DNA of 64,000 bases, taken from contig JAJDUD010000062.1 in assembly GCA_022826825.1 (NCBI GenBank), forward strand, positions 1 to 64,000, given 5' to 3'. A model generated the notes under the pieces. That model had not been told where the DNA came from. It did no database searches and saw only the letters and a program-made list of their open reading frames with translations. A program made the translations under genes and the position numbers. The stretch comes from Acidobacteriota bacterium. Lineage in GTDB: Bacteria; Acidobacteriota; Vicinamibacteria; Marinacidobacterales; Marinacidobacteraceae. How positions within the stretch are numbered: position 1 is the stretch's first letter; each line of letters opens with the position of its first letter. Below, in pieces: positions 30,730 to 54,700 of this stretch.

Positions 30730-30733
30730 GACG

Positions 30734-30920
30734 CTAGGAGGCGGTGGTGGAACTCGGGTGAGCGCCGAGCCTGGTGAGGCGCCCGGCTGACAAGGCGCGT
30801 GAGGGAGGAATACCGGGTGTATTCCGACCGAAACGCAACGATGACGGCCGCGTAGCGGCCCGGTTCAGCCGGGATGCATCGCCGGGCGAACGCCGCGTGA
30901 GTTTCACCACAGCCTCCTAG
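30734..30920. repeat. Palindromic core-sharing element A between rpsE and rpmD
   Basis: A 187-bp insertion with 22-nt outer arms, 30734-30755 and 30899-30920: 20 Watson-Crick pairs, one G-T and one mismatch. The right arm carries the TAG stop of rpsE. Inside are CCCGGCTG (30782-30789)/CAGCCGGG (30867-30874) with the ATGCATCGCC motif after it, GCGT/ACGC, the apical hairpin GGAATAC/GTATTCC and GGCCGC-GTA-GCGGCC. The core matches elements B, D and E. Confidence 0.75.
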
Positions 30921-31483
30921 GCCCGGATCTCCGCCTCGATGTGGCTCACGTCTTTCCCCCGCAGCTCCGCCACGGCGGCCTTCGAGCGCAGGGAGAGGAG
31001 CGCGACCATCGTCGCTTCCACCACGTTCTTGGGATTCGCGGTGCCGAGCGATTTGGTCAGGATGTCCTTGATTCCGGCCAGCTCGATGACGGCGCGCACC
31101 GGGCCGCCGGCGATCACCCCGGTCCCCTCCGACGCCGGCTTCAGCAGGACCCGGCCCGCTCCGAATACGCCCACGACCTCGTGAGCGATGGTGCTTCCCT
31201 CGCGCGGAACCGTCGTCAGATTCTTCTTGGCGATCTCGATTCCCTTCTTGATCGCCGCCGGCACCTCGCGCGCCTTGCCGAGACCGAAACCCACGCGGCC
31301 GTCCTCGTTTCCAACGACAACCAGCGCGGAGAAGGAGAGGTTCTTTCCGCCCTTGACCACCTTGGTCACCCGGTTGATCGAGACGACCTTGTCCTTGAGA
31401 TCGGGATCGCCGGTGCGCTCCACCTGCGTGTTGCGCGAACCGCTGCGAGGCCTCGATCGGCCACCCGCATCCATGCTCAGCAC
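30917..31483 (-). CDS. rpsE: Small ribosomal subunit protein uS5
   Basis: A 188-residue uS5 with the double-stranded-RNA-binding part ([29 protein letters not shown]) and the second domain ([24 protein letters not shown]). The [21 protein letters not shown] helix is intact. It contributes to decoding fidelity and mRNA unwinding. It overlaps rplR by 7 nt, and its stop lies in the arm of element A. Confidence 0.97.
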
Positions 31484-31830
31484 TGAACCCCTCCATTCCT
31501 CACCGCGTCGGCGAGGGCCTTGATCCGGCCGTGGTACTGGGCCCCGCCGCGATCGAAGACCACCGTCCCGATGCCGGCTGCACGGGCCCGCTCGGCGAGC
31601 TTCTCGCCGACCAGAGCGGCGCCCTTGGCGTTTCCACCATCCTCGATCCCGGTCTCGCGGCTTCCCGCGGCGACCAGGGTCGCGCCGGCAGCGTCATCGA
31701 TCACCTGCGCATAGATGTGCTTCAACGAGCGATAGACCGCGAGCCGCGGGCGCCCGGCGGTGCCGGTGATCTTCCGGCGAATGCGGGCATGGATGCGCCG
31801 CCTTCGCTGGCGACGGGTCGTGATTCGCAT
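31477..31830 (-). CDS. rplR: Large ribosomal subunit protein uL18
   Basis: A 117-residue 5S rRNA-binding protein: [36 protein letters not shown] and the C-terminal [25 protein letters not shown] are canonical. It is in standard spc order between rplF and rpsE. Confidence 0.97.
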
Positions 31831-31863
31831 GGCTCCCTTGTCCTCGAGCTCTTGTCCTCGGGG

Positions 31864-32397
31864 TCAGGCCCCGGTCTTTCCTGCCTTCTTGATGAGACGC
31901 TCGCCGGTGTAGCGAACTCCCTTCTGCTTGTACGGGTCCGGTTTGCGGAGCGCGCGGATGCGCGCCGCCACCTCGCCGACGACCTGCTTGTCGGCGCCCG
32001 AGACGACGACGTGGGTGTTTTTCTCGATCCGCACGTCGATCCCGTCGGGCAATGTGAACTCGATGGGGTGGGAATAGCCGAGCGCGAAGGAGACGTTGCG
32101 TCCCTTCACCTGCGCGCGGTAGCCGACTCCCACGATGTCAAGCTCCTTCTGGAAGCCCTGGGAGACGCCGGTCACCGCGTTCGCGAGGAGCGCCCGGGTG
32201 AGCCCCCAGATCGCCCTGTTCCCCGAAGCCTCCCGAAGGGACACCTGGGCGACACTGCCGTCGAGCTTCACCTGGATGCCCGGGAGGATCGGACTCGTAA
32301 GGACACCCTTGGGGCCCTTCACGCGGATCTCGGAACTCTCGATGGTGATCGAGACCCCGGACGGGACCGGGATCGGCTTGGCGCCTATGCGGGACAT
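31864..32397 (-). CDS. rplF: Large ribosomal subunit protein uL6
   Basis: A 177-residue uL6 with [43 protein letters not shown] and the closing [24 protein letters not shown]. It lies near the sarcin-ricin loop and the factor-binding site. Confidence 0.98.
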
Positions 32398-32401
32398 CGG
32401 C

Positions 32402-32797
32402 CTACCACACCTGGCAAAGGACTTCTCCGCCCACGCCGAGATGGCGCGCCTGCCGGCCCGTCATCACCCCGCGGGAGGTGGAGAGCACGGTGACGCCGAG
32501 CCCTCCCTGCGCCTTGGGAATCTTCTGGTGCGACACATAGACGCGGGTGCCGGGCCTCGAGATCCGCTTGAGCCCGCTCAGCGCGTCCCGATTGCCGGGC
32601 AGGCGCCGCAACTTGATGCGGATGGCGTCCTGTGGCGGAGAGGAGCGGCGCTCCCACCCGTCCACGTACCCCTCCTCGTGAAGGATGCGGGCGATCTCCT
32701 CTTTCAGCTTCGAAGCGGGGATCTCGACGAAGTCGTGCCGCGCCTGAATCGCGTTGCGAAGACGGGTGAGCATGTCGGCCACCGGGTCAGACCACAT
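32402..32797 (-). CDS. rpsH: Small ribosomal subunit protein uS8
   Basis: A 131-residue uS8: [33 protein letters not shown] at the start and [28 protein letters not shown] at the end. I chose the ATG at 32797, 7 nt after GGGAGG; a GTG one codon upstream is an alternative. In many bacteria uS8 represses the spc operon by binding its mRNA. Confidence 0.97.
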
Positions 32798-32809
32798 CAC
32801 AGAGCCTCC

Positions 32810-32995
32810 CTACCAACTCGCCTTGATGACACCGGGGATCTCCCCCGCGAGCGCCAGCTTCCGGAAGCACAGACGGCAGAGCCCGAACTTCCGGAGATAG
32901 GCCCGTGGGCGGCCACAACTCAGGCAGCGGTTGTAGCGCCGCACCTCGAACTTGGGCCGCTTCCTTGCCTTGGCAATGAGTGATTTCTTCGCCAA
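32810..32995 (-). CDS. rpsZ: Small ribosomal subunit protein uS14, zinc-binding short form
   Basis: A 61-residue protein, the short type Z uS14. It has two CxxC pairs (CLSC near 24-27 and CRLC near 40-43) that hold zinc and ends [11 protein letters not shown]. It follows element B and precedes rpsH by 9 nt. Confidence 0.97.
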
Positions 32996-33014
32996 AACCC
33001 TCTCCTCTGCTTCT

Positions 33015-33235
33015 TAACAGCCTGTGGTGGAACTCACGTGAGCACCGACCCCCCACCGGGAGAACTGGTGCCCGCTGGGCCTCGCTGACCAGGCGCGCGA
33101 GGGAGGAATACCTGGCGTATTTCGACCGAAGCGCAACGATGAGCGAGCCAGGGGCGAGCGGCCAGTCCTCCCGGTGGGGGCCAGCGGGGATTCAGCGGGT
33201 GTCGAATGCCGCGTGAGTCTTGTCACAGGCCGTTA
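33015..33235. repeat. Palindromic core-sharing element B between rplE and rpsZ
   Basis: A 221-bp insertion with 24-nt outer arms, 33015-33038 and 33212-33235: 18 Watson-Crick, four G-T and two A-C positions. Inside, CCCGCTGG/CCAGCGGG replaces the CCCGGCTG/CAGCCGGG stem of element A, GCGC pairs with GCGC, and the apical hairpin is GGAATAC/GTATTTC. It is longer than A because of extra CCCCACCGGGAG/CTCCCGGTGGGGG arms (about 33050 and 33168). Confidence 0.72.
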
Positions 33236-33246
33236 TCTCCTGGGTA

Positions 33247-33795
33247 CTACGCTTCCCGGCGGGCGAACGGCATGCCGAAGGCGCGGAGCAGCTCTCGCGC
33301 GTCCTCGTCGCTCGTCGCGGTCGTGCAGATGGTCACGTTCATCCCGCGCGTCTTCTCGATCTTCGAGTAGTCGATCTCGGGGAACACGGATTGGTCCGTC
33401 AGGCCCAGGGTGTAGTTGCCCCGGCCATCGAAGGCGCGGTCCGAGACACCGCGAAAGTCGTGCACCCGAGGCAACGCGATGTTGATCAACCGGTCCATGA
33501 ATTCGTACATCCGGACTCCGCGCAGCGTGACCCGCACGCCTACCGGCATGCCGTCCCGGATCTTGAAATTGGCGATGGACTTCCGGGCCCGCGTCACTAC
33601 CGGCCGTTGCCCGGTAATCGCCGTCAGGTCCGCGACCGCGGCGTCGATGAACTTGTGCTCCCGCGCCCCTTCTCCAACGCCCATGTTGACGACGACCTTG
33701 GTAACTCGAGGTACCGCGTGCACGCTGGCAATCTCCAGCCTGGTGCGCAGATCGGGAGCGATCGTCTCCCGGTACCGGGAACGAAGACGGCTCAC
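33247..33795 (-). CDS. rplE: Large ribosomal subunit protein uL5
   Basis: A 182-residue 5S rRNA-binding protein: [52 protein letters not shown] and [21 protein letters not shown] are diagnostic. A GTG start overlaps the rplX stop by 4 nt. The stop is 12 nt before the arm of element B. Confidence 0.97.
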
Positions 33796-34145
33796 TTGTC
33801 AATCACTCCCTGCGAACGGACGCTCACCCGAACCTTGCGTCCATCGGTCAGCCGGGTCCTCCCGGTTCGGGTCGGGAGATTGGTCTCCGGGTCCACGATC
33901 ATCACGTTGCTGATCGCGATCGAGGCTTCGCGTTCGACGACACCACCCTTGATGTTCTGTCGCGGGTTCGCTTTCGTGTGCCGCTTGATCATGTTGATGC
34001 CCTCGACGAGCACGCGTCCGGTTTCAGGAAAGACCCGGAGGATCCGTCCCCGCTTTCCCAGGTCGCTGCCGGCCATGATCTGGACGAGGTCGTTCTTGCG
34101 AACGTGCAGTCGCCGCGGCGGAGCTGCGCTCTTCTTCCGGGACAT
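33792..34145 (-). CDS. rplX: Large ribosomal subunit protein uL24
   Basis: A 117-residue uL24 with the KOW motif ([26 protein letters not shown]) and [29 protein letters not shown]. The ATG at 34145 sits 10 nt after GGAGG. A GTG two codons upstream overlaps the rplN stop and is an alternative. It initiates 50S assembly. Confidence 0.96.
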
Positions 34146-34147
34146 CG

Positions 34148-34516
34148 TCACAGGACCTCCGGAGCGAGCGAAACGATCTTCATGAACTGACGCTCTCGCA
34201 GTTCGCGGGCGACCGGACCGAATACCCGGGTTCCGGTGGGCTCGCGCTGCTCGTTGATCAGCACTGCGGCGTTGTCACCAAAGCGGATGTAGGACCCGTC
34301 CGCCCGGCGGTGTTCCTTCCGGGTCCTCACGATCACGGCCTTGACGACCGTCCCTTTCTTGACCGCACTCCCCGGGGCGGCTTCACGGACCGAGGCGGTA
34401 ATGACATCCCCGAGCCGGGCAATGCGGCCCACCCCGCCCCCAAGCGGAAGGATGCAGGTGACCCGGCGGGCGCCGGAGTTGTCGGCGACCTGCAGCACCG
34501 ACTGCATCTGGATCAT
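34148..34516 (-). CDS. rplN: Large ribosomal subunit protein uL14
   Basis: A 122-residue uL14, the exact family length, from [19 protein letters not shown] to VSLAPEVL. The [28 protein letters not shown] segment is conserved. It opens the spc cluster. The start lies 4 nt inside the end of rpsQ. Confidence 0.98.
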
Positions 34517-34758
34517 GTGGCGCGCTCCACAACCTTGAGCAGCCGGAAACGTTTCGTCCGGGAAAGCGGACGGCATTCCTCGATCTGGACGCGGTCCCCG
34601 ATGCGGCCCTCGTTCTTCTCGTCGTGAACCGCGAAGCGGGTGGACTTGCGGTACCGGCGCTTGTACAGGCGGTGTTCCACCAGGCGCTCCACGAGCACCG
34701 TGATGGTCTTTTCGGCGCCGCTGGCGACCACGGTTCCGGTCCTGATCAGTCTTGGCAT
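34513..34758 (-). CDS. rpsQ: Small ribosomal subunit protein uS17
   Basis: An 81-residue OB-fold protein: [53 protein letters not shown]. The ATG at 34758 aligns with the usual N-terminus; a GTG at 34779 would add seven residues. It binds 16S rRNA early in assembly. Confidence 0.96.
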
Positions 34759-34785
34759 GACGGTTCTTCTCGTACTCACCGGCCT

Positions 34786-35016
34786 CTAGGAATCGGAGGC
34801 GCTGCTCCCCGGGGCATCGGCCCCGATCTCGAGCTCGCGCTCCCTCATGATCGTCTGGAGCCGGGCGACCTGGCGCCGCAGCACCTTGACCTTGTGCGTG
34901 TGACCGAGCTGACCGGTAGCGGCCTCGAGCCGGGCCTCGAACAGATCCCGCGTCACTTCCTGCTGCTTCCTCACGAGTTCGTCGTGGGTCAGCTCACGAA
35001 CCCGGGCGGCCTTCAC
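34786..35016 (-). CDS. rpmC: Large ribosomal subunit protein uL29
   Basis: A 76-residue two-helix protein with [32 protein letters not shown] and [19 protein letters not shown]. It has a short acidic/Ser tail. It sits at the tunnel exit next to uL23. A GTG start overlaps the rplP stop. Confidence 0.96.
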
Positions 35017-35435
35017 GACGATTCCTCCTCAAAGCGGCCGACGAACTGCGTCTTCACCGGAAGCTTGTGGCTCGCCCGGCGCATCGCCTCGATGGCCTGT
35101 TCCCGGCTGACGCCTTCCATTTCGAAGAGAACCCGCCCCGGACGCACCACGGCGACCCATCCCTCGGGCCCGCCTTTTCCCTTGCCCATCCGGGTCTCCT
35201 GGGGTTTCTTGGTCACTGGTTTGTCGGGGAAGATCCGGATCCAGACCCGCCCGGTCCGCCGGATGAAACGGGTGATGGCCACCCGCGCCGACTCGATCTG
35301 ACGATTGGTGATCCATCCCGGCTCCAGCGTCTTGAGGCCAAAGTCTCCGAACGCCACGGTCTGTCCCGTCCAGGACATGCCGCGCATGCGGCCGCGCTGC
35401 TGTTTCCGGTACCGGGTTTTCTTCGGCATCAGCAT
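35013..35435 (-). CDS. rplP: Large ribosomal subunit protein uL16
   Basis: A 140-residue uL16 beginning [19 protein letters not shown], with [19 protein letters not shown] and [21 protein letters not shown]; the latter carries the Arg reached by the hydroxylase in some bacteria. The extension contacts the A and P sites. Confidence 0.97.
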
Positions 35436-35466
35436 GGCGTTTCTCCTCCCAGATCCTCTTGAGGCC

Positions 35467-36165
35467 TCAACCGGCGCTTGCCTCTTCGGAGCCGGAGGCT
35501 GACGGCTTCAAGGAAATCTCCGGACGCCCGGACCGGTTCACCGCGTCGCTGACGCCCCGGTAGACCCAACACTTGACCCCGATCTGACCGTAGGTCGTGA
35601 AGGCTTCGGCGAGCCCGTACTCGATGTCGGCCCGCAGCGTGTGGAGCGGGAGCTGTCCCTCCAGATACCACTCCGCCCGGGCGATGTCAGCCCCGTTGAG
35701 ACGTCCGGCGCACCGGATGCGGACACCCTTGGCCCCGTTGCGCATGGTGTTCTCGACGGCCTTCCGCATCGCGCGCCGGAATGCGATCCGCTTCTCGAGT
35801 TGGAGGGCGATGGACTCGGCAACCAACTGTGGGTCGAGCTCGGGCTTGATGACCTCGAGAGGCCGAATGTGGACTTCCTTGCCGGTGCGCTTGCGGAGAT
35901 CGCGCGTCAGCTTCTCCACCTCCGTCCCCTTTCGGCCGATGATGATTCCGGGCCTCGAGGTGTGGATGTAGATGTTGAGCTTGTTGCCCGGCCGCTCGAT
36001 CTCCACCCGCGAAATACCCGCGTGGTACAGGCGGCGCTTGAGAAGGCGCCGCAGCTTCAGGTCTTCGTGCAGCGAATCCCGGTAAGCGCTGTCCGCGAAC
36101 CAGCGGGAACGCCAGGTCTTGCTGTATCCAAGCCTGAAGCCGTGCGGGTGTACTTTTTGACCCAT
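35467..36165 (-). CDS. rpsC: Small ribosomal subunit protein uS3
   Basis: A 232-residue uS3 starting [18 protein letters not shown], with the KH domain ([16 protein letters not shown]) and the C-terminal domain ([27 protein letters not shown] region). A short Ser/Ala/Glu tail ends the protein. It forms the mRNA entry site. Confidence 0.98.
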
Positions 36166-36167
36166 TC

Positions 36168-36527
36168 CTATTCCTCTTCGATGGCGGTTACGCGGATCGT
36201 GTAGTGGGTGGTTCGCCGCCGAATGCGACGGATGCGGGCCCGCCGGCCGCTCCGGGCGATCGCCCGGGCCGGTCCCTGGTCGGCAAACGCCTCGGAAACC
36301 ACGAGCTTGTCCTCATCGATCCGCCTCGCTTCGCCGAGGGCCTTCGTCTGGGCATTCGCGATGGCCGACCGCAGCACCTTCTCGATGATGGGCGCCGGCG
36401 CGCGATTCGTGTTCTGCAACACCGAAATGGCATCCGGCGCGGGCTTGTCGCGGATGAGGTCGAGAACAAGCCGGGCCTTCTGAACCGAACCGGGGACGGC
36501 TGTCGCCCGGGCAACCGCTTCGATCAC
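36168..36527 (-). CDS. rplV: Large ribosomal subunit protein uL22
   Basis: A 119-residue uL22 from a GTG start: [31 protein letters not shown] and the beta-hairpin tip region [31 protein letters not shown], which lines the peptide tunnel where macrolides act. It ends 2 nt before the rpsC start. Confidence 0.97.
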
Positions 36528-36555
36528 GGTGTCACCCCCGTTCGCGAGCGCGGTC

Positions 36556-36840
36556 TCATCGGCGCGCCCTCGACTTCTCGGTCTTCACCTTGTGGCCCTT
36601 GAAGGTCCGCGTCGGCGAGAACTCACCGAGTTTGTGACCCACCATGTTGTCGGTCACATAGACGGGAATGAACTTGCGGCCGTTGTGAACGGCGAAGGTC
36701 AGACCCACCATCTGCGGAACGATCGTGGAGCGCCGTGACCAGGTCTTGATGATCGTCTGCCGGCGCGCAAGGTGCGCGTCTTCGACCTTCCGGATCAGGC
36801 TTTCCTCGATGTACGGGCCCTTTTGAATCGAACGCGGCAT
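36556..36840 (-). CDS. rpsS: Small ribosomal subunit protein uS19
   Basis: A 94-residue uS19: [65 protein letters not shown] read in sections along the chain. It binds the 30S head with uS13. Standard S10 cluster position. Confidence 0.98.
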
Positions 36841-36895
36841 TCTCTGGTCCTTTTCTGATCCCTGTTCCGATCCTCGTGTTCCGGGGTTCCCCGCT

Positions 36896-37729
36896 CTACC
36901 TTCTGCGGCGCCGGCGGGACCGGACGATCATCGAGTCGGTCCGCTTGTTGTTGCGGGTCTTGTGTCCCTTGGTCGGTACGCCCCAGGGGCTCACCGGGTG
37001 ACGTCCTCCGGAACTCTTGCCTTCGCCGCCGCCGTGAGGGTGGTCCACCGGATTCATCGTGACTCCCCGGTTGTGCGGCCGGCGGCCAAGCCAGCGCTTG
37101 CGGCCGGCCTTGCCGAGCTTCACGTTCTCGTGGTCCACGTTGGAGACCTGCCCGATCGTGGCGTGACACTCACGCAGCACCTTGCGGACTTCGCCGGAGG
37201 GAAGGCGCACCTGCGCGTAACGCCCCTCCTTGGCGACCAGTTGCACGAACGCACCGGCGCTGCGCGCCATCTTGCCGCCGCCCCCGGGCCGGAGCTCGAC
37301 GTTGTGAATCGTGGCGCCCAGGGGAATGCGGTCGATGCGGAGCATGTTTCCGGGCGCGATTTCGGCGCTGTCGCTCGCCATCACCACGTCGCCGACCTTC
37401 ATCCCGACGGCGTGCAGAACGTACCGCTTGTCTCCGTCCACATAGTGAAGAAGAGCGATCCGGGCCGAGCGATTCGGGTCGTACTCGATGGACGCCACCC
37501 GTCCGGGCACCCCCGGTTTCGCCCGCCGGAAGTCGATTTCCCGGTGGCGCCGCTTGTGGCCGCCCCCGCGGAAACGGACCGTGATGCGGCCGGCGGTGTT
37601 CCGCCCGCCGCGCTGGCTCTTTCCCCGCGTCAGCCGCTTCTCCGGCGTGGTGGTGGTGAGTTCCTCGAACGTCTGGACGGTGTGGAACCGGCGTCCGGGG
37701 GAGGTCGGCCGGGATTTCTTGATAGCCAT
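36896..37729 (-). CDS. rplB: Large ribosomal subunit protein uL2
   Basis: A 277-residue uL2 with the N-terminal OB and SH3-like domains ([15 protein letters not shown]) and the peptidyl-transferase-proximal motif [14 protein letters not shown], whose His is conserved. The ATG at 37729 opens [15 protein letters not shown]; extra upstream in-frame codons are intergenic. Confidence 0.98.
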
Positions 37730-37739
37730 TTCGAGACCC

Positions 37740-38030
37740 CTAAACGCCCTTGAAGAGTTCGATCGCATGGCCCTCTTCGAGGGTCACGTACGCCTTCTTC
37801 CAGTTGGGGCGGCGCCCGACGAAGCGGCCCCATCGCTTGTTCTTGCCGGTGAAGTTGGACGTGCGGACATCCTTGACTTCCACCTCGAAGAGAGTCTCCA
37901 CGGCGCGGCGGATCTGGATCTTGTTGGCCTTCGGGCTCACGCGGAAAGCGACGACGTTCTGGGTTTCCCGAAGGCGTTCCGCTTTTTCGGTGGTGAGCGG
38001 TTCCAGGATGACGCGGTCGGCTTCCATCAT
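37740..38030 (-). CDS. rplW: Large ribosomal subunit protein uL23
   Basis: A 96-residue uL23: [39 protein letters not shown] and [22 protein letters not shown]. It docks trigger factor and SRP at the tunnel exit. Two adjacent ATGs (38030, 38027) overlap the end of rplD. Confidence 0.97.
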
Positions 38031-38743
38031 CGGCTCCTTGCCTGCGGGCTTCCTGCTTCGGACAGCTTTTCGGAGAGTGCGGCGAGCGCGGAACGCCGAA
38101 TGAGCACGGTCTTCGCCTTCAGCACCTCGTAGCAGTGAAGCGCCATCACCGAGACCACTTCGACCGTCGGAAGGTTCCTCGTCGACAGGTAGAGATCGTC
38201 GGACGGGGCCTTCTCCACGATCAGCACGCGTCCGCCCGCCGAGTCCCACTCGCCCAGGCGCCGGAGGACGGCCCGCGTGGAGGGTCCCTCGAGACCGAAG
38301 TCTTCGAAGACGCGCAACCGCCCTTCGCTCGCGCATAGCGAAAGCGCCGAGCGGAGCGCCCCGCGCTGCATGCGGCCGGGCAGCCGGTAGCTGTAGTCGC
38401 GAGGCTGTGGTCCGAACACGGTCCCGCCGCCCCGCCACAACGGGGTGCGGCGGCTTCCGACGCGCGCGTTTCCGGTGCCCTTCTGCCGCCACGGCTTGCG
38501 GCCGCCTCCGGCAACGAGCGCGCGGTTCTTTGTCGCGTGGGTCCCGGCGCGCCGCCCGGCCATGTACTGGCGAACGGCGTCGTAGTGAAGACCCGGCTTG
38601 ACCGGCGCCGCGAAGACGGCCGGATCAAGTTCCACTTCACCGCCTTCGGAACCGGGCGCGACCACGGACACAGCGCGCCCCTGAGAATCTTCGGCCTCGG
38701 GCAAGCCTTCCGCCGGAAGCGCCCTTCCCTCTGCCACGGTCAC
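38027..38743 (-). CDS. rplD: Large ribosomal subunit protein uL4
   Basis: A 238-residue uL4 with the tunnel loop ALVAGGGRKPWRQKGTGNARVG (about 76-97) and the C-terminal Rossmann-like part. The GTG at 38743 is chosen because AGGAAG sits 7 nt upstream and the product starts at the usual place; the frame extends upstream through non-family sequence. uL4 controls the S10 operon in enterics; no such leader can be claimed here. Confidence 0.95.
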   Translation of the reverse strand: MTVAEGRALPAEGLPEAEDSQGRAVSVVAPGSEGGEVELDPAVFAAPVKPGLHYDAVRQYMAGRRAGTHATKNRALVAGGGRKPWRQKGTGNARVGSRRTPLWRGGGTVFGPQPRDYSYRLPGRMQRGALRSALSLCASEGRLRVFEDFGLEGPSTRAVLRRLGEWDSAGGRVLIVEKAPSDDLYLSTRNLPTVEVVSVMALHCYEVLKAKTVLIRRSALAALSEKLSEAGSPQARSR

Positions 38744-38802
38744 TTTCGTTCTTCCTGTTCTGGTTCTGCGGGTCGGTGGTCTTCTCGCGCTGCTCTCGCT
38801 CG

Positions 38803-39432
38803 TCAGGCCTTGCGAATCTCGACGGTCCCGCCGCGCGGGCCGGGGACGGCGCCGCGCACCGCCACCACGTTTTCCTGCGTATCCACCCGAACGATCCGGA
38901 GGTTCCGGACCGTCACGCGTTCCCGGCCGTGCTGACCGGGAAGCCGGGTGCCCGGGAGCACCCGCGAGGGAGTTGCGCACATTCCGATCGCGCCCGGCGC
39001 GCGATGGAACTTGGAGCCGTGCGACTTCGGCCCGCCGTGGAAGCCGTGCCGCTTCATCACTCCGGCAAAGCCCTTGCCCTTGCTGACGCCGGTGATCCGA
39101 ACCACCTCGTCCGGAGAGAAGACCTCGGCGCCGAGCCGGGAACCAACCGCCAGGTCCTCACCCGAGTCCGCCTGGAACTCGCGTAGCACCGAGGCGGAGG
39201 GGGCTCCGGCAACCTGCAGCCGGGTGGCGAGCGCCCGGTTGCGGGCGGGGCGGCTTCCGGGACCGGCGGACCGCTCCAGGCCGACCTGAACGGCTTCGTA
39301 TCCATCGCTCGCCGTCGTCTTCTTCTGTACGACGACGCAGGGACCCACCCGAATCAGGGTGACGGGAATCACCCGGCCGTCGTCCCCGAAATGCTGGGCC
39401 ATCCCCAGCTTCGTGCCCAGCAGTCCGTTCAT
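38803..39432 (-). CDS. rplC: Large ribosomal subunit protein uL3
   Basis: A 209-residue uL3: MNGLLGTKLGMAQHFGDDGRVIPVTLI at the start, GVSKGKGFAGVMKRHGFHGGPKSHGSKFHRAPGAIG around the glutamine-methylated loop region, and LPGQHGRERVTVRNL. It initiates 50S assembly. Confidence 0.98.
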   Translation of the reverse strand: MNGLLGTKLGMAQHFGDDGRVIPVTLIRVGPCVVVQKKTTASDGYEAVQVGLERSAGPGSRPARNRALATRLQVAGAPSASVLREFQADSGEDLAVGSRLGAEVFSPDEVVRITGVSKGKGFAGVMKRHGFHGGPKSHGSKFHRAPGAIGMCATPSRVLPGTRLPGQHGRERVTVRNLRIVRVDTQENVVAVRGAVPGPRGGTVEIRKA

Positions 39433-39480
39433 CGTTCTTTCTCCGCGATTCCCGTCCGTCCGTTCCCTGCCTGGCGCTTC

Positions 39481-39813
39481 CTACTTGACCTGCGGCTCGC
39501 CGGCCACCATCGCCTTGATCTCGACGTGGACGCCGGCCGGAAGATCCAGCCGTGACAACGCATCGACCGTCGTCGGAGTGGACCCCAGGATGTCCAGAAG
39601 CCGCTTGTGCGTGCGGAGTTCGAACTGCTCCCGGGACTTCTTGTCCACGTGCGGGGAGCGAAGAACGGTGTAGCGGTTCTTGACGGTCGGCAACGGGATC
39701 GGGCCGGCTACCGTGGCGCCCGTCCGCTTCGCCGTCTCCACGATCTCACTCGTGGATTGATCCAGCAGGCGGTGGTCGAACGCCTTGAGTCGGATGCGGA
39801 TCTTTTCGTTCAT
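39481..39813 (-). CDS. rpsJ: Small ribosomal subunit protein uS10
   Basis: A 110-residue uS10/Nus[40 protein letters not shown] and [24 protein letters not shown] are canonical. It also acts with NusB and NusG in antitermination. It is 36 nt downstream of fusA, so str and S10 clusters run together here. Confidence 0.98.
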
Positions 39814-39849
39814 CGGTTGAAGTCCTCGTCAGGCGTCCCCGTGTCCCCG

Positions 39850-41922: not shown

Positions 41923-42170
41923 GGGAACTGGAGGGCGATGGGTCTTGGGAGGATGATCCGTTGGGAAACGATGGAAGAAAGTCCGAATTGCCTGCGGTTC
42001 GATTCGCGCGCGATGACGAACGGATCAAGTCCGCCTCACCGGGCCATCGGGGCCCGATTGGGCTGGACTCAACAGTCGATCTCATTTGGCGAAATCGTGC
42101 TTGCTTCCTGAATGGCGGTTCCTCCGATGTGTTGTTTGCCGATGGATGTGGATCGAGTCTGAGGGAGCGG

Positions 42171-42641
42171 CTACCAGCGGTGGTGGGCGAAGGCTTTGTT
42201 CGCCTCCGCCATCTTGTGGGTGTCTTCGCGTTTCTTGATGGCCCCACCCCGATTCTGGGAGGCGTCGAGCAGTTCGCCCGCCAGCTTCTCCGCCATCGTC
42301 TTTTCCGGCCGCTTCCGCGCGTACCCCACGATCCAGCGCAGGGACAGCGAAGTACGCCGCTCGGGACGCACCTCGTAGGGCACCTGGACGTTGGCCCCAC
42401 CCTTCCGGCGGCTCTTCACCTCGAGGGTCGGCTTGACGTTCTGGACGGCCTCGCGAAAGGTCGTGAGCGGCTCGCCGCCCGTCTTGTCCCGGATGCGGTC
42501 GAAGGCGCCGTACACGATCGACTCGGCCGTCGACTTCTTTCCGTCCAGCATCACCTTGTTGATGAACGATGAGACGAGCACGCTCTGGTAGCGCGCGTCC
42601 GGAGCGGGTTGCCGCTTCGGCACGTCACGGCGTCTGGACAT
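42171..42641 (-). CDS. rpsG: Small ribosomal subunit protein uS7
   Basis: A 156-residue uS7: [47 protein letters not shown] in order, then [28 protein letters not shown]. It organises the 30S head and can repress the str operon. A 248-bp spacer separates it from fusA, which is long for this operon; no gene or clear signal is seen in it. Confidence 0.98.
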
Positions 42642-42675
42642 CTCCGAATCTCTCTTGCGCTAGCGGCTCTACCGG

Positions 42676-43050: not shown

Positions 43051-43168
43051 GGGGAAATCGAATCCGAAGGAAAATGCTGGGCCCCCGCAGGGGAAGGGAA
43101 ACTGGGACGTGCACCGCCCACCCGTCAGGCACTCACCATCGGGGCTCGAAGAAAGGCGATCGGCGGCT

Positions 43169-43184
43169 GTTTCCCGAGGGAAAC
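43169..43184 (-). promoter_or_regulatory. Leader hairpin upstream of rpsL
   Basis: GTTTCCC-GA-GGGAAAC is a perfect 7-bp palindrome about 45 nt into the predicted rpsL leader (about 180 nt long). It might fold in the mRNA or bind a protein. No resemblance to a known uS7 or uS12 site is claimed. Confidence 0.3.
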
Positions 43185-43236
43185 GATGACGTCCACGACG
43201 CTCGAAAATGCGTTTTGGGCGCGTAGCGGACAAAGG

Positions 43237-43266
43237 ATTTTACGCGCTGGCGCGCGTACGTGTCAA
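43237..43266 (-). promoter_or_regulatory. Strong sigma70-type promoter of the str-S10-spc-alpha genes
   Basis: On the minus strand a perfect -35 TTGACA (43261-43266) is separated by 18 bp from TAAAAT (43237-43242). It lies between the end of rpoC and rpsL and points toward rpsL, with a leader of about 180 nt. It is the best promoter between rpoC and rplQ. Confidence 0.8.
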
Positions 43267-43349
43267 ATCCGAATGGCCGGCCGCCGGCGGCGCCGGCCGC
43301 GACCGAAACCCCGAGGCAACCGGGGGCTTCCGGGCGTCGCGGAGAGCCG

Positions 43350-47690
<4,341 letters not shown>

Positions 47691-47710
47691 TTCGTCCCTC
47701 TCGATTGCTA

Positions 47711-47883
47711 GTGTGGTGTCCCGGAAGTAGTGCGAGTTTCCGAGAGCGGTGAGGCGCCCGGCTGGCAAGGCGCGAATCGGGAGGAATACCGGGCGTATTC
47801 CGACTGATTCGGAACGCCGAGCGCAGCGGTCCAGCCGGGATGCATCGCCGCTCGAATACCGTAGTACTTCCGGGACATCACAC
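47711..47883. repeat. Palindromic core-sharing element D between rpoB and rpoC
   Basis: A 173-bp insertion with 21-nt outer arms, 47711-47731 and 47863-47883: 19 Watson-Crick, one G-T and one mismatch. The arm sequence (GTGTGGTGTCCCGGAAGTA) is unrelated to that of A, B or E. Inside are CCCGGCTG/CAGCCGGG, then ATGCATCGCCG and TCGAATACCG, CGAATC (47773-47778)/GATTCG (47806-47811) and the apical hairpin GGAATAC/GTATTCC. Confidence 0.78.
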
Positions 47884-47897
47884 GAACTACTGGCCGA

Positions 47898-50800
47898 TCA
47901 GTTCTTGGCGCGGATCAGCTCGATGTCGAGCCCAAGGCTCTGGATTTCCGCCATCAGCACCTTGAACGATGCCGGCACCTCGGGCGAATAGCTCGTGTCG
48001 CCCTTCACGATCGACTCATAGACCTTCGCGCGTCCCCGAACGTCGTCCGACTTCACGGTCAGGATCTCCTGAAGCGTGTGAGCCGCACCGTAAGCCTCGA
48101 TTGCCCACACCTCCATCTCGCCGAACCGCTGACCGCCGAACTGCGCCTTGCCGCCAAGCGGCTGCTGCGTAATCAGGCTGTAGGGCCCGATGCTGCGAGC
48201 GTGCATCTTGTCGTCCACCAGGTGACCGAGCTTGAGCATGTAGATGTACCCGGAAGTGACGGGCTGATCGAATGGCCTTCCGGTCCGGCCGTCGTAAAGG
48301 ACGGTCTTGCCGTCCTCCAGAACGTTCGCGCGCAGTCCATCCTCCTCCTGGGCCCTGTCGTTGGCCTCGTCGAGGAGTTTGCGGATGTCCGTCTCCCGAG
48401 CTCCGTCGAAGACGGGCGTGGCGAAGTGGCGATCCAGCATGCGCGCCGCCCAACCAAGGTGCGTCTCGAGGACCTGGCCGATGTTCATGCGCGACGGAAC
48501 GCCGAGCGGATTCAGGATGATGTCCACCGGCGTGCCGTCCGGCAGGAACGGCATGTCCTCCACGGGCACGATCTTGGCGATGACGCCCTTGTTGCCGTGC
48601 CGGCCGGCCATCTTGTCGCCCACGCTGAGCTTCCGCTTCATGGCCACGTAGACCTTGACCATCTTGATGACGCCGGGTGGAAGATCGTCTCCCTGGCTCA
48701 CTACGGCCTGCTGCTCGTCGCGGCGGACCGAGAGCAGATCCAGTTGTTCCTCGGTCTTTTCCTGTATCTCCTGGATCTCATCCCTCACGTCGTCGGGAAG
48801 ATCGGTCTCGAACAGGGGAACGAAGTCCAGCCGCTTCAGCAGTTCCTTCCTGGTCAGGCGGGTACCTTTCTTGAGTTCGACTTCTCCGGTGGCCGGATTC
48901 ATGCAGTCCTCAACCAGGTGAGCGCCAACCATTCGGTCCACGATGCGCTTGTCGCACTCCTCGCGCAGGATCCGCTCTTCATCGTGGTAGTCGCGGTCGA
49001 TGGCCTCGATGTCATCCGCCTCGATCGACAACGCTCGCTCATCGCGGTTCGCATCCTTCCGGTGGAATACGCGAACGTCAACGACCACGCCTTCGACTCC
49101 GGACGGGCACTTGAGCGACGAGTTCTTGACGTCTCCGGCCTTGTCTCCAAAGATCGCCCGGAGGAGCTTTTCCTCCGGAGTCAGTTGGGCTTCGGCCTTG
49201 GGGGTAACCCGCCCGACGAGGATGTCGCCGGGACTGACCCGGGCGCCGATGCGCACGATGCCCGATTCGTCGAGGTTCCTGAGGAAGCTCTCGGCAACGC
49301 CGGGCACCTCGCGCGTGATGGACTCCGGACCCAGCTTGGTGTCCCGCGCCTGCACGGTGTGCTCTTCGATGTGGATCGAGGTATAGCTGTCGTCCTGAAC
49401 GAGCCGTTCCGAAACGATGATCGCGTCCTCGAAGTTGTAGCCGCGCCACGGCATGAAGGCGACGAGCACATTGCGGCCCAGCGCCAGTTCGCCGCCGTCG
49501 GTGCACGGGCCGTCGGCAATGATCTGACCCCTCGCGACCCGTTCGCCCACTTCCACGAGGGGCTTCTGGTTGATGGAGGTGTTCTGGTTGGAGCGGCGGA
49601 ATTTCTTCAACCGGTAGATGCTGGCCCCGATCTCGGTCTCCCCGGCTCCGTCGCTCTCCTTGCGAACGATGATCCGGCGCCCGTCGACCCGGTCCACGAC
49701 TCCGTTCTCCCGGCACACGATGACCGACCCGGAATCGCGAGCGGTCACGAATTCCATGCCCGTGCCAACGAGCGGCGCCTCCGCCGTGATCAGGGGGACC
49801 GCCTGGCGCTGCATGTTCGAGCCCATCAGGGCCCGGTTTGCATCGTCGTTCTCGAGGAAGGGCACGAGCGAGGCCGCCACCGAAACGATCTGCTTCGGAG
49901 ACACGTCGATGAAATCGACTTTCTCCCTCGGAGCGGGCACGAACTCGCCCTCGTGACGGCAGTTGACGCGCGGGTCCAGAAGCTCGCCGCGCTCTCCTAC
50001 CCGGGCGTTCGCCTGCGCGATGGTGTGGCGTTCTTCCTCGAGCGCCGAAAGGTAGAAGGCGTGAGGGATGACAGTGGCGGGTTTCCGGCGGCGTCCAATC
50101 TTGGCGTTTGCCGCCTCGGCGTCCTTCCGCGGGACGATGCCGCCGGACTCGAGCTTGGTGTCTCCGGGATCCTCAACGCGCACGTAGTCCACGATCCGGC
50201 CGTCCACGACCTTTCGGTAGGGACTCTGGATGAAACCGTAGTTGTCGATCGTCGCGTAGCAGGAGAGCGAACTGATCAGCCCGATGTTCGGACCTTCCGG
50301 CGTCTCGATGGGACAGATCCGTCCGTAGTGCGTCGCGTGGACATCCCGCACGTCGAACTTGGCACGGTCACGGGAGAGTCCTCCCGGACCCAGTGCCGAA
50401 AGACGGCGCTTGTGCGTCACCTCGGAAAGCGGATTGGTCTGTTCCATGAACTGCGAGAGCTGGGAGGCGCCGAAGAACTCGCGCACCGCGGCGGTCACCG
50501 GCTTCGCGTTGATCAGGTCCCGCGGCATCGCGGTCGTCATTTCCTGATACACGTTCATCTTCTCGCGAATCGCGCGCTCCATCCGGACGAGGCCCAGGCG
50601 GAACTGGTTCTCGAGGAGTTCGCCGACCGACCGCACGCGACGGTTGCCGAGGTGGTCGATGTCGTCCGCCCGGTAGCCGCTCTCGCCTCGGGTGAGGCGA
50701 AGGAGGTAGTCCAGAACCAGGACGAAGTCCTCTTCCGCGAGGATCGTGCGGTTGGGATCCATCTCCCGTTCGAGCTTGGTAGCCAGCTTGCGGCGCCCGA

Positions 50801-52121
50801 CCCGGGAGAAGTCGTACTTCTGTTCATTGAAGAACAGGTTGTGGAGCAGGGTCCGGGAGCTTTCCACCGTGGGCTGATCGCCGGGGCGTTGCCGGCGGTA
50901 GAGCTCGACGAGCGCTCCGTCGACGCTCTCCGCATTCGGCGCATCCGTGCCCCGTTGCCGGGTGAGTGGATCCTTGTCCAGCGTGTCGGCCAGAACCGTG
51001 CCGACCGGATCCGCGCCCGGCAGCACGACCCGGAGCGTGCCCGCTTCACCGAGTTCGTCCACGAGTTCCGGGGTCAAACGCGCGTTGGCCGGAACCTCCT
51101 CACCGGTGTCCGGAATCGTCGCCGCAACGGCCAGCCGGAAACCGCCGAGGGCCTCCAGATGGAAATCCAGTGCTTCCCGTTTCTGCCGGGTCAGTCTCCG
51201 GATGTCCCCGCGGCTGATCCGCTTCCCGCCCTCGATGACGACCTCGCCGTCCGCCTCGATGTCCCGCTCGATGCGCTCGTCGAGGAGCATCTCCTTCAAG
51301 GTTTCGGTGAGCGGCAGCCGGACACGGTCCCCGGTCAGCGTCGCTTCGTGAACGTGATAGAAGCGCGCCAGGATCGACTCCGTCTTCCCGAACCCGAGCG
51401 CCCTCAGGAAGATGCTTGCCGGAAAGCGCTTCTTGCGGTCGATGCGGACCTGCAGGAGCCCTCGCGCGTCCGTCTCGAACTCGAGCCATGAACCCCGATA
51501 GGGCACGACCTGGGCCAGAAAACAACCACGCTCCGCCTCATGGAAGAAGACTCCCGGCGAACGATGCAACTGGGAGACGACGACGCGTTCGGTCCCGTTG
51601 ATGATGAACGTCCCGTTCTCGGTCATCAGCGGGATGTCGCCGAAGAAGACCTCTTCTTCCTTGATGTCGTGGATCGACCGCTGATTGGTTTCCGGATCCC
51701 GGTCCCAGACGGTCAGCCTGATCTTTACCTTCAGGGGTACGGCGTACGTCTTGCCGCGCTGCTGGCACTGCTCCACGTCGTGTTCGACCTTCAGGTGGAC
51801 CCGATCCCCGCAGTAGTTGCAGACCGAACCGTTCCGCGTGTGTTCGATGCCCTCCAACTCGCCGCAACTGCACGCCCACCGGCCTACCGAGTACTCGAGA
51901 AAGTCCAGCTCGCAGTTGTCGCGAAAGTCCTTGATGGGGAAGATCGAACGGAATACGGCCTGGAGGCCGATCTCCTCGCGATCCTGCGGCTGCAGGTCCT
52001 TCTGAAGGAATCGGTCGTAGGACCGATGCTGGACCTCGATCAGCTTGGGCAGAGGAATCGACGCACGGATGCGCGAGAAGTCGTGCCGCGTTTTCTTCGG
52101 AGTGATGTCAGCGGTCAGCAT
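47898..52121 (-). CDS. rpoB: RNA polymerase beta subunit
   Basis: A 1407-residue subunit, a little longer than the 1342 of E. coli. The rifampicin region reads [29 protein letters not shown] in order; the position equivalent to E. coli Asp516 is Glu, while His526 and Ser531 equivalents are kept. The C-terminal clamp/switch region ([24 protein letters not shown]) is intact. It follows rplL after 181 bp and precedes element D and rpoC. Confidence 0.98.
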
Positions 52122-52302
52122 GAGGACGGCCTGTTCGCGTTGCTACGAGACACCCGACGCGGGGCCGCCAGACGGCGCCCCGACGAGTCGGGAGATAGTC
52201 CGGACGGCCGCTGCCGCCGGCTGATGGCGGTCCTCCACCATCAGCGCAGCGCGGGACGCGGCGAAACCGGGGGAAAGAATGGGCAAAGGAGACGCACCCG
52301 AT

Positions 52303-52683
52303 CTACTTGATTTCGATCGTCGCGCCGACCTCCTTGAATCGCTCCTGGATCTGCTTGGCTTCCTCGATGGGAACGCCTTCCTTGACCGCTTTCGGAGCCT
52401 CTTCCACGAGCGTCTTCGCCTCCCGGAGGCCGAGACTCGTCAGTTCGCGAACCGCCTTGATGACCTGAACCCGGTTCGGGCCGGTCTCCGTGAGTACGGC
52501 GTCGAACTCCGTCTGTTCCTCGACCGGCTCGGCCTCACCGCCGCCGGCCGCGACGGCCACCGGCATGGCGGCCGCAGCGGAGACTCCAAGTTCATCCTCG
52601 AGCGCCTTGACGAGTTCGGACAACTCCAACACGGTGAGCTGTTTGATGTGGTTGACAACATCCTGCTGGCTGATTGTCGACAT
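52303..52683 (-). CDS. rplL: Large ribosomal subunit protein bL12 (L7/L12)
   Basis: A 126-residue stalk protein: N-terminal dimerisation helices ([21 protein letters not shown]), an Ala-rich hinge and the C-terminal factor-binding domain ([40 protein letters not shown] in the second half). Standard position between rplJ and rpoB. Confidence 0.98.
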
Positions 52684-52787
52684 GGTGGGCTTCTACTCCT
52701 TACGCCTTGAATCGAAAGTGGGCAAATGGCGTGACAACGAAAGACCGGTGGTGGCGAGCGCCTGGTTCCGATCCCACGGGCTGAGGG

Positions 52788-53324
52788 TCACTGGGCGGCA
52801 CCCCCGCCGGCGGCGGCCTTCTCTTCGGCTGCCTTGAGCACGAGAACGAGCTTCCGGGGAACTCCCTCGAGGACGTTCATCAGGTTCCGGATGGGCGCCG
52901 CGATGACGCCGACGAGCTGACCGCGGAGAGCCTCCTGGCCGGGAAGCTTCGCCAGCGCCTCGAACTGCTGCGGATCGACCTGCTGGTCGGAAACGACGCC
53001 GCCCTTGTACTGGAAAGCGGCGAAGTCCCTGGTCCCCTCGTGGAGAACCTTGGCCAGGGCCACGGGGTCGTCCTCACTCCAGGCGAGGCCGGTCATCCCG
53101 ACGAGCTGGTCGTCCAGTCCGGAAATACCGGCCTCCTCGAAGGCCCATTTCGCCGTGCTGTTCTTTACGACGCGGTACTTGCCGCCGGCTTCGCGGACCC
53201 GGCGGCGCAAATCCGTGACTTCCGCCACGGAAAGGCCCCGGTAATCGAAAGAAAACACCGCTGTCTGCGCCTTGAGTAGCGCGGCGAGCGACGTAGCCGC
53301 TTCCTGCTTCTCCATGCGTTGCAT
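52788..53324 (-). CDS. rplJ: Large ribosomal subunit protein uL10
   Basis: A 178-residue stalk base protein: VFSFDYRGLSVAEVTDLRRRVREAGGKYRVVKNSTAKWA in the first half and the C-terminal helix that binds bL12 dimers (GVPRKLVLVLKAAEEKAA). ATG 53324 and ATG 53315 are both possible starts. uL10 with bL12 often regulates its own mRNA; only 37 nt separate it from rplA here, leaving no room for the long leader seen in E. coli. Confidence 0.97.
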   Translation of the reverse strand: MQRMEKQEAATSLAALLKAQTAVFSFDYRGLSVAEVTDLRRRVREAGGKYRVVKNSTAKWAFEEAGISGLDDQLVGMTGLAWSEDDPVALAKVLHEGTRDFAAFQYKGGVVSDQQVDPQQFEALAKLPGQEALRGQLVGVIAAPIRNLMNVLEGVPRKLVLVLKAAEEKAAAGGGAAQ

Positions 53325-53361
53325 CGTTTCGACCCTTTCCCTGATCTCCGGTGGGCCCGGC

Positions 53362-54051
53362 CTACTTGGCTCCGACCAATGAAGGACTGATACGGAGGCC
53401 GGGACTCATCGTCGAACTGATGGCGACGCTCCGGATGTAACGGCCCTTGGCTGCCGCCGGCTTCGATCGAACTACGGCCGAGACGAAGGCCAGCGTGTTT
53501 TCCACCAGCCGCTCATCGGAAAACGAGAGCTTCCCGACGGGAGCGTGGATGTTTGACGTCTTGTCCACGCGATAGTCGACCTTGCCGGCCTTGATCTCCT
53601 GGACGGCCTTCGCCACGTCGAACGTGACGGTTCCGGACTTGGGATTGGGCATCAGTCCCCTCGGTCCCAGAATCCGCCCGAGCTTCCCGACCGAGCGCAT
53701 CATGTCCGGCGTCGCCACCACGGCTTCGAAATCCAGAAAGCCGCCCTGGATGCGGGCCACCATGTCGTCGCCGCCTACTTCGTCGGCGCCCGCTTCCTCG
53801 GCCTCCTTGGCCTTTTCGCCCGCAGCAATCACCACGACGCGGCGCGAGATTCCAAGTCCGTGCGGGAGAACCACCGAACCGCGCACCATCTGATCGGCGT
53901 GCCGCGGATCCACGCCGAGCCGCATGGCGATTTCGGCAGTTTCGTCAAAGGAAGCGAAGCTCGCGCTCTTGAGCGTCTTGAACACCTCGCCCAGTGTCTC
54001 CGGCTGTGAATCAGCGAGCGCCGTCTTCGCCGCCTGGTACTTCTTTCCCAT
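53362..54051 (-). CDS. rplA: Large ribosomal subunit protein uL1
   Basis: A 229-residue L1-stalk protein: [33 protein letters not shown], the [28 protein letters not shown] core and the closing [14 protein letters not shown]. uL1 moves deacylated tRNA and is the usual repressor of the rplKA mRNA. Confidence 0.98.
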
Positions 54052-54083
54052 GATTCGCGTTCCTGATCTCTGTCTCCGAACCC

Positions 54084-54503
54084 TCAGCCCACTTCGATGC
54101 CCATGCTGCGGGCCGTTCCCTCGACGATGCGCCGCGCGGCGTCGATGTCGGCGGCGTTGAGGTCCTTCATCTTGATCTTGGCGATTTCCTCCACCTGGCT
54201 GACCGATACCTTGCCCACCCGCATCCGGTTCGGCTCACCGGACCCCTTCGCGATTCCCGCCGCACGCTTCAGCAGCACGGCCGCCGGCGGGGTCTTGGTG
54301 ATGAAGCTGAAGGAACGGTCCTGATAGACCGTGACCACGCAGGGAATGATCATGCCCGGGTCGTTCGCGGTCTTCGCGTTGAAGGACTTGCAGAAGTCCA
54401 TGATGTTGATGCCGTGCTGTCCGAGCGCGGGCCCAACGGGCGGCGCCGGGGTCGCTTTGCCGGCGGGCAACTGGATCTTCGCGACCGCGAGCACTTTCTT
54501 CAT
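54084..54503 (-). CDS. rplK: Large ribosomal subunit protein uL11
   Basis: A 139-residue uL11: [45 protein letters not shown] in order, with the thiostrepton-region prolines. The ATG at 54503 has GGAGG 8 nt upstream and is where the family starts. Element E lies directly upstream, between this gene and nusG. Confidence 0.98.
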
Positions 54504-54524
54504 CGCATGTTCCTCCGGCGGGGG

Positions 54525-54700
54525 TAGCGGTCCATGGACATGGTGGGCCGAGCACCGAGAGCGGGGAGGCGCCCGGCTGACAAGGCGCGGCTCGGGAGGC
54601 ATACCGAGCGTGTTCCGACCGAGCCGCAACGCAGAGCGGAGCGGTGCAGCCGGGATGCATCCCCGTTCGAATGCCGGTTTACCTTGTTCATGGGCCGCTA
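54525..54700. repeat. Palindromic core-sharing element E between nusG and rplK
   Basis: A 176-bp insertion with 25-nt outer arms, 54525-54549 and 54676-54700: 19 Watson-Crick, five G-T and one mismatch. The right arm contains the TAG stop of nusG. Inside are CCCGGCTG/CAGCCGGG with ATGCATCCCCG, TCGAATGCCG, a perfect 9-bp stem GCGGCTCGG (54587-54595)/CCGAGCCGC (54619-54627) and an apical hairpin GGCATAC/GTGTTCC. Confidence 0.78.

What the first reader, a model, noticed from the sequence alone, without database searches (positions are those of the whole stretch)
30734..54700. Family of palindromic elements with a shared core and covarying outer stems inside ribosomal and RNA polymerase operons
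Elements A (30734-30920), B (33015-33235), D (47711-47883) and E (54525-54700) share GAGGCGCCCGG-like arms, an apical GGAATACCGGGCGTATTCC-type hairpin, CAGCCGGGATGCATC and TCGAATGCCG. Outer stems of 21-25 nt are complementary within each copy (18-20 Watson-Crick pairs each), yet D and E have arm sequences unrelated to each other and to A/B. Internal stems also change in pairs: GCGT/ACGC, GCGC/GCGC, CGAATC/GATTCG, GCGGCTCGG/CCGAGCCGC; and CCCGGCTG/CAGCCGGG versus CCCGCTGG/CCAGCGGG. This is strong covariation from four copies. Either a structured RNA class or a mobile hairpin element is implied. I do not recognise it.
Basis: seen in the sequence. Interest (0 to 1): 0.88.

Follow-up and report, generated by a model that had tools for sequence, protein, structure and literature searches.

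The report
Mobile hairpin elements with conserved core
The four repeats are copies of a small jumping DNA element that folds into one long hairpin; its middle is kept across very distant bacteria while its ends change in matched pairs, and it may be related to the Correia elements of Neisseria.

Summary
A, B, D and E are four of about 49 copies in this genome of a 170-220 bp non-autonomous mobile element (MITE). All four are absent from the matching sites in the seven same-genus genomes compared. Most copies end in TA plus a purine. The "unrelated" arms of D and E are terminal inverted repeats shared with sister copies, so the arm covariation among the four is mostly a class difference. The unusual part is the interior. 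It is conserved in 25 of 247 Acidobacteriota genomes (own included) and on a Desulfosarcina plasmid. A model built without them also finds it in Cupriavidus and Eleftheria MITEs, whose interior matches the Neisseria Correia element. In 29 dissimilar copies arms are 16.6/20 alike within and 5.7/20 between elements, and one strand folds better in all 29. Interior pairs covary. Common pair variants are G-U, almost never A-C (31:2); rare ones are 40:39. I read this as an IS630-type (TA-target) MITE superfamily whose folded interior matters for amplification, not a host RNA gene. The Correia link is indirect, and no transposase was shown to move these copies.

The parts
30737..30917 (+). Element A, arm class GCAGCC/GGAGGC, beside the S5 gene (genes on -)
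30735..30736 (.). A: left TA of the target duplication
   Evidence: CTAG at the empty site of relatives
30918..30919 (.). A: right TA; with the element's last base it forms the TAG stop of the S5 gene
30776..30881 (+). A: conserved core (model R1 match, 98.2 bits; not in the training set)
33017..33233 (+). Element B, arm class GCAGCC (begins ACAGCC), with an extra CCCCCACCGGGAGAAC/CTCCCGGTGGGGG stem inside
33074..33197 (+). B: conserved core (R1 match, 68.2 bits; not in the training set)
47711..47883 (+). Element D, arm class GTGTGGTGTCCCGGAAA (resembles IS630-type ends); left TA at 47709-47710, GA instead of TA on the right
47751..47847 (+). D: conserved core (R1 match, 94.5 bits; this copy was in the R1 training set)
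54527..54698 (+). Element E, arm class GCGGTCCATGG, between NusG and L11 genes; its last base completes the TAG stop of NusG
54566..54662 (+). E: conserved core (R1 match, 84.5 bits; this copy was in the R1 training set)

Best explanation
These are copies of a small non-autonomous transposable element (MITE) of the TA-target, IS630/Tc1-mariner type. It is made of (i) two terminal inverted repeats of about 20-40 bp that begin with a purine after the duplicated TA and differ between classes, and (ii) a conserved interior of about 84-106 nt that folds into one long hairpin with the fixed motif AAGGCGCG...GCAACG. Most likely steps: an IS630-family transposase acting in trans recognises class-specific ends and inserts the unit at TA. 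TA often lies in a stop codon, and TA plus the element's purine re-forms TAA or TAG, so operons survive insertion. The interior is kept because lineages whose + strand (RNA or single-stranded DNA) folds properly amplify better. Once inserted, copies drift. Shown: copy number, TA ends, empty sites, arm classes, conserved covarying interior, strand asymmetry in Acidobacteriota. Inferred: the transposase, the need for the fold in amplification, and whether RNA or ssDNA is the folded form.
For: Empty sites: all four elements are absent from 7 of 7 same-genus genomes; site A is a single CTAG in six of them. Genus set: of 128 copies with paired arms, the terminal pair is G-C in 82 and A-T in 41, and the adjacent base pair of the two TAs is A-T in 105. 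Arms of one copy match 19.4 of 25 versus 14.6 with another copy's arm. In 29 dissimilar copies from other genera, arms match 16.6 of 20 within a copy and 5.7 of 20 between copies. Core: 25 of 247 genomes, 19 of 141 genera; 20 of the 25 gave no training sequence. Covariation on 33 cores: 94.6% of cells paired, 15 of 24 pairs with double changes against 8.8 shuffled, score 0.358 against 0.137, 0 of 500 shuffles (the structure was derived from the same alignment). Interior is less variable than arms: entropy 0.47/0.42 versus 0.89. + strand folds better in 29 of 29 dissimilar copies and 28 of 30 own-genome copies. Common GU:AC variants 31:2, rare 40:39, Fisher 8.5e-6. The own genome has one IS630 transposase locus whose ends are TA|GTGTCATGTCAC and TA|GTGTCTCGTCAC; D-type arms begin TA|GTGT. 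31 of 81 copies in co-directional gaps lie within 3 nt of the upstream stop.
Against: No autonomous element with the GCAGCCTGTGG or GTGTGGTGTCCC ends was identified. The IS630 ends agree with D-type arms only in the first bases; 3 of 9 IS630 loci examined had TA|GTGT ends. 18 of the 25 genomes, several with many copies, have no PF13358 match. At sites B and D, and at E in six of seven relatives, the empty site itself shows no TA at the exact place, so the duplication is best seen at A. A conserved interior with changing ends is the reverse of the usual MITE. Many common GU variants may descend from few events, so the Fisher value is optimistic. In dissimilar copies the outer-arm GU:AC bias is weaker: 56:32, p 0.014, 14 copies against 8. 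The strand asymmetry is not seen in the betaproteobacterial and Correia elements: differences of 0.6 to 2.6 kcal/mol, one of five reversed.
Confidence: 0.68

Rival explanations
1. A host-serving structured RNA class (cis-regulatory or mRNA-processing element) kept in ribosomal and RNA-polymerase operons.
For: Strong covariation and strand asymmetry; insertion inside essential operons; Correia elements inside mRNAs are RNase III substrates (PMC2649163, passages).
Against: None of the four operon copies exists in 7 same-genus genomes; only 25 of 247 genomes of the phylum gave a match; pair changes seen once are GU 22: AC 19, i.e. no sign of selection on single copies; in co-directional gaps the better-folding strand is usually antisense, 57 against 24 (own genome alone 11:6, not significant).
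Confidence: 0.08
2. REP/BIME-like element moved by a RAYT (Y1) transposase on single-stranded DNA.
For: Palindromic, intergenic, single-strand fold asymmetry; two Y1_Tnp genes in this genome.
Against: On reading, both RAYT loci are flanked by a different repeat, and model R1 finds no core there; TA is duplicated relative to the empty site at A; TA plus purine at both ends of most copies.
Confidence: 0.08
3. An ordinary inert MITE: the matched arms and stems arise only from transposase matching and hairpin-mediated correction (one arm copied onto the other), with no selection on folding.
For: Gene-conversion-like correction would also give double changes; new arm classes appear whole; no strand asymmetry in the betaproteobacterial elements.
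Against: Does not explain why interior loops (AAGG, GCAAC) are fixed across families and in Desulfosarcina, nor why common variants are G-U and not A-C on one strand only.
Confidence: 0.16

Closest known systems
Correia element / CREE (NEMIS), Neisseria
   Same: 105-157 bp, TA target, inverted-repeat ends, conserved oriented core, long hairpin, found beside genes (PMC2649163, 12 of 16 passages; PMC2229807, part 1 of 3). A real copy (L221) contains ACAAGGCG-A-CGA...GGCAACGCC at the matching place of the core.
   Different: Ends unrelated to ours; core shorter; no strand asymmetry. Direct model scores: none with R1, 11.1 bits, E 0.16 with R2, below the best background score of 21.3. The link runs through Cupriavidus/Eleftheria elements: blastn E 3e-6 and 2e-3 to CREE (reverse 3e-6) and R2 33.7/29.3 bits.
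RUP of Streptococcus pneumoniae (IS630-Spn1-mobilised MITE)
   Same: TA ends, IS630-type mobilisation proposed (PMC2229807).
   Different: Sequence and structure not compared here.
Chunjie MITE of Geobacter uraniireducens
   Same: 178-235 bp, dozens of copies, one in a phosphate-uptake operon (review PMC10969869, passages, which says it disrupts that operon; I recall the original title as saying it does not).
   Different: Sequence not available here; whether it shares the core is untested.
REP/BIME with RAYT
   Same: Intergenic palindromes in high copy.
   Different: No association with the two RAYT loci found.

Membership tests
Bacterial MITE (TA-target, IS630-type) | Short, multicopy, no transposase of its own | tested here: met
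   172-217 bp in the window; 49 model matches in the genome
Bacterial MITE (TA-target, IS630-type) | Terminal inverted repeats next to a TA target duplication, shown by an empty site | tested here: met
   Met at A: single CTAG in six of seven relatives, TA on both sides here. B and E have TA on both sides, but relatives show TA at E in one of seven and not at B; D has GA on the right
Bacterial MITE (TA-target, IS630-type) | Ends shared with an autonomous IS630 in the same genome | tested here: inconclusive
   One IS630 with TA|GTGTCTCGTCAC ends; D arms agree in GTGT and partly after; A and E arms do not
Correia/CREE | 26-bp Correia ends | tested here: not met
   Arms differ (against 102)
Correia/CREE | Correia core | tested here: inconclusive
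   R1 no match, R2 11.1 bits, E 0.16; indirect link through Cupriavidus and Eleftheria
REP/RAYT | Palindrome flanks a cognate RAYT gene | tested here: not met
   Two RAYT loci read; a different repeat flanks them, no R1 match
Known Rfam family | Match at the gathering score | tested here: not met
   Only tRNAs in the window and in six loci; nothing credible at E<=10 in 30600-33400
Structured RNA class serving the host | Conserved genomic position across species | tested here: not met
   0 of 7 same-genus genomes have A, B, D or E; other positions not compared

The most novel reading that the evidence does not exclude
A cross-phylum superfamily of bacterial MITEs is defined by its folded interior rather than its ends: a single-strand hairpin module (RNA or ssDNA) that works in cis for mobilisation and is carried under many transposase-specific ends. 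The Correia elements of Neisseria, whose mobilising mechanism was undetermined as of 2009 (PMC2649163), would be one branch.
Probability: 0.33. Interest if true: 0.85.

Novelty: new variant of a known kind. Interest (0 to 1): 0.62.

Why it matters
MITEs are usually recognised by their ends. Here the ends are replaceable and the inside is conserved, so end-based catalogues would miss the relationship. If the interior hairpin is needed for movement, that is a new requirement for IS630-type non-autonomous elements and gives a handle on the mobilisation of Correia elements. The contrast between rare and common G-U/A-C variants also offers a general test of whether a repeat's fold matters for amplification or for the host.

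Tried and rejected
Rejected: a 4-bp YTAR duplication (first idea). The terminal purine is the same at both ends even when the flanking base differs, and B (TTAA left, TTAT right) fits a 2-bp TA duplication better. Rejected: unique arms in D and E. Rejected: REP/RAYT.

Autonomous partner: pairs of like ends 0.35-3.9 kb apart exist in the 1.39 Mb examined. Several are neighbouring copies or chance; I did not examine each for genes, but tblastn with the L216 transposase over 276 loci found it only in loci fetched as IS630. PF13358 matched in 3 of 10 genomes (own included) and 7 of 25 chosen genomes; none of the 9 loci examined had A-type ends.

Other scans: viral contigs with GACAAGGCGCGA..GAGCAACGC 0; phages 0 at E<=1. 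Model R1 alone could not separate Cupriavidus (26.6 bits) cleanly from a match in L042:351-419 that I take as false (23.3 bits). R2 did: 33.7 against 21.3 for the best other match in 267 kb. Three of four Paraburkholderia loci (L224, L225, L227) gave no R2 match and the fourth (L226) 19.3 bits, under that background.

Literature: searches listed no paper that I recognised as describing this core outside Neisseria. Only three papers were opened, in part. The library lacks most subscription papers, and the original Chunjie paper was not in the listing, so this is weak evidence of absence.

Dropped rows: 223 nhmmer hits reduced to 191 distinct; 128 of 191 with both arms paired used; 29 of 41 candidate dissimilar copies used, the rest failing the motif/arm score or being over 80% alike (an earlier count, with looser grouping gave GU 70: AC 28 in 25 copies, core included). 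In one search a crude test saw TA at 16 (left) and 15 (right) of 29 ends, and the between-copy arm figure is not corrected for differing arm starts.
Full report
OBSERVATION. The window holds four copies of one element in ribosomal/RNA-polymerase gene clusters whose genes lie on the minus strand. Boundaries without the flanking TA are A 30737-30917, B 33017-33233, D 47711-47883 and E 54527-54698. Pfam identifies L15, S5, S8, L5, RpoC, L7/L12, L11 and NusG around them. blastn of the whole genome with A gives 42 matches, and covariance model R1 gives 49 at E<=0.01, 8 of them training sequences. Rfam 15 has no family for it. The source is an Acidobacteriota MAG: contigs of the same-genus genomes agree in length with records titled Acidobacteria(ota) bacterium.

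ARMS. The D and E arms, unrelated to those of A and B, are not private. D has five near-full-length sisters at 86-94% and two at 74-76%; E has one at 77%. In the genus-level set, 128 of 191 distinct copies have both arms; these match their own partner at 19.4 of 25 positions and another copy's partner at 14.6. The terminal pair is G-C in 82 copies and A-T in 41 of 128, and the adjacent base pair of the two TAs is A-T in 105. Arms are therefore terminal inverted repeats that occur in classes.

MOBILITY. At each of the four sites, all seven same-genus genomes G001-G007 lack the element while flanks align at 87-97%. At A six of the seven have a single CTAG, and here CTA-element-TAG; G001 holds nine extra bases. 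At E only G005 of the seven shows TA, and at B and D the relatives show none at the exact place, so the duplication is best seen at A. A and E sit exactly at the stop codons of S5 and NusG, and the element's last base completes the TAG. By a simple codon-usage gene finder, 31 of 81 copies in co-directional gaps lie within 3 nt of the upstream gene's stop. None of the 117 copies with a called gene on both sides was placed inside a gene, although short or unusual genes could be missed. In co-directional gaps the + strand is antisense in 57 and sense in 24 (p 0.0003), but in the own genome alone 11:6.

TRANSPOSASE. TA target, purine ends and GTGT-type arms suggest the IS630/Tc1 family. The own genome has one IS630 locus with ends TA|GTGTCATGTCAC and TA|GTGTCTCGTCAC. 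Of 9 IS630 loci examined, 3 have TA|GTGT ends (own, G030, G270); a MITE of G031 has ends GTGTTTCGTTAC and GTGTCTCGTTAC. No autonomous element with A- or D-type ends was identified, and 18 of 25 genomes had no PF13358 match. The transposase step is inference.

INTERIOR. Copies in other genera and families share the core but not the arms. R1 finds the core in 25 of 247 genomes of the phylum, 19 of 141 genera, at E<=1e-4. Five of the 25, the own genome included, had supplied training sequences. The search scored 17 candidates per genome with stricter filters, so copy numbers and genome counts are lower bounds. blastn finds the core on a Desulfosarcina plasmid (E 8e-6, 76.7% over the whole core query). 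In 29 dissimilar copies, arms are 16.6 of 20 alike within and 5.7 of 20 between copies, not corrected for register. On 33 cores, 94.6% of cells pair, 15 of 24 pairs have double changes (shuffles 8.8), the score is 0.358 (shuffles 0.137) with 0 of 500 shuffles as high, and slid structures reach at most 0.066. The structure tested came from the same alignment, which favours it. AAGGC...G.AACG is invariant or nearly so. In the genus set the interior is less variable than the arms (entropy 0.47 paired and 0.42 unpaired versus 0.89).

WHICH STRAND AND WHEN. The + strand folds better in 29 of 29 dissimilar copies with RNA parameters and 28 of 29 with DNA parameters, and in 28 of 30 own-genome copies. 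In the betaproteobacterial and Correia elements the strands are nearly equal, one of five reversed. A transition in a Watson-Crick stem pair gives A-C or G-U with equal chance if folding does not matter. In the genus set, pair variants seen in at most 3 copies are 40 G-U and 39 A-C; those in 4 or more copies are 31 and 2 (Fisher 8.5e-6). Using only pairs predicted on both strands they are 39:32 and 25:2, and using the minus-strand fold 39:37 and 27:6. So single inserted copies seem to drift freely, while lineages that multiplied kept the + strand fold. Relatedness among copies makes the p-value optimistic. In dissimilar copies the outer arms show 56:32 (p 0.014; 14 copies against 8) and the core flank 21:0, the latter probably one ancestral pair.

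RELATION TO CORREIA ELEMENTS. Its interior matches Cupriavidus metallidurans and Eleftheria terrae elements that have different ends (blastn E 3e-6 and 2e-3; reverse search 86.8% over 52 nt, E 3e-6). Model R2, trained only on Acidobacteriota and Desulfosarcina, finds Cupriavidus at 33.7 and Eleftheria at 29.3 and 27 bits, against 21.3 for the best other match in 267 kb. Three of four Paraburkholderia loci are missed and one scores 19.3. Correia itself scores 11.1 bits at the expected place, which is not significant. [quoted passage not shown] A link between Correia and our family is plausible through an intermediate, not shown directly.

VERDICT. An ordinary kind (TA-target MITE) with an unusual property (conserved folded interior under changing ends). 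Most likely mechanism: trans-mobilisation by IS630-type transposases, with the folded + strand favouring amplification. The fold's role and the molecule that folds are open.

Noticed in passing
window 33050-33068 and 33162-33180; L015, L017, L022, L023, L025, L029, L030: A second repeat (GGAGGACGCG..ATGGGCGTTTCTCCCGGTGGGGG) replaces one end of several copies (read), and a CCCCCACCGGGAG/CTCCCGGTGGGGG hairpin forms an extra stem inside B: elements are mosaics.
   Followed up: partly
L013, L058, L116, L143, L145, L160, L173, L182: Copies whose right end is replaced by another repeat (GTTCGCTTCCGGAGCGGGGCGCGAGC..CTTGAGCACGAGG), so they have one original end only.
   Followed up: no
L068 1567-1610: A roughly 43-bp hairpin of two A-class arms without any core.
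   Followed up: no
G001 site orthologous to A (L209/L191): The empty site has nine extra bases (CTGTGGCGGCTAG), possibly an excision footprint.
   Followed up: no
L080, L081: Two RAYT (Y1 transposase) genes beside clusters of a different GC-rich palindromic repeat.
   Followed up: no
L216 1-1224: IS630 element at a contig end, in two overlapping frames that meet near an A-run, as if by frameshifting.
   Followed up: no
L048 1605-1684: A second, shorter core-bearing repeat (28.4 bits) lies beside a full one in family f9.
   Followed up: no
L119: A contig titled Gemmatimonadetes carries two core matches; another phylum or a mis-binned contig.
   Followed up: no
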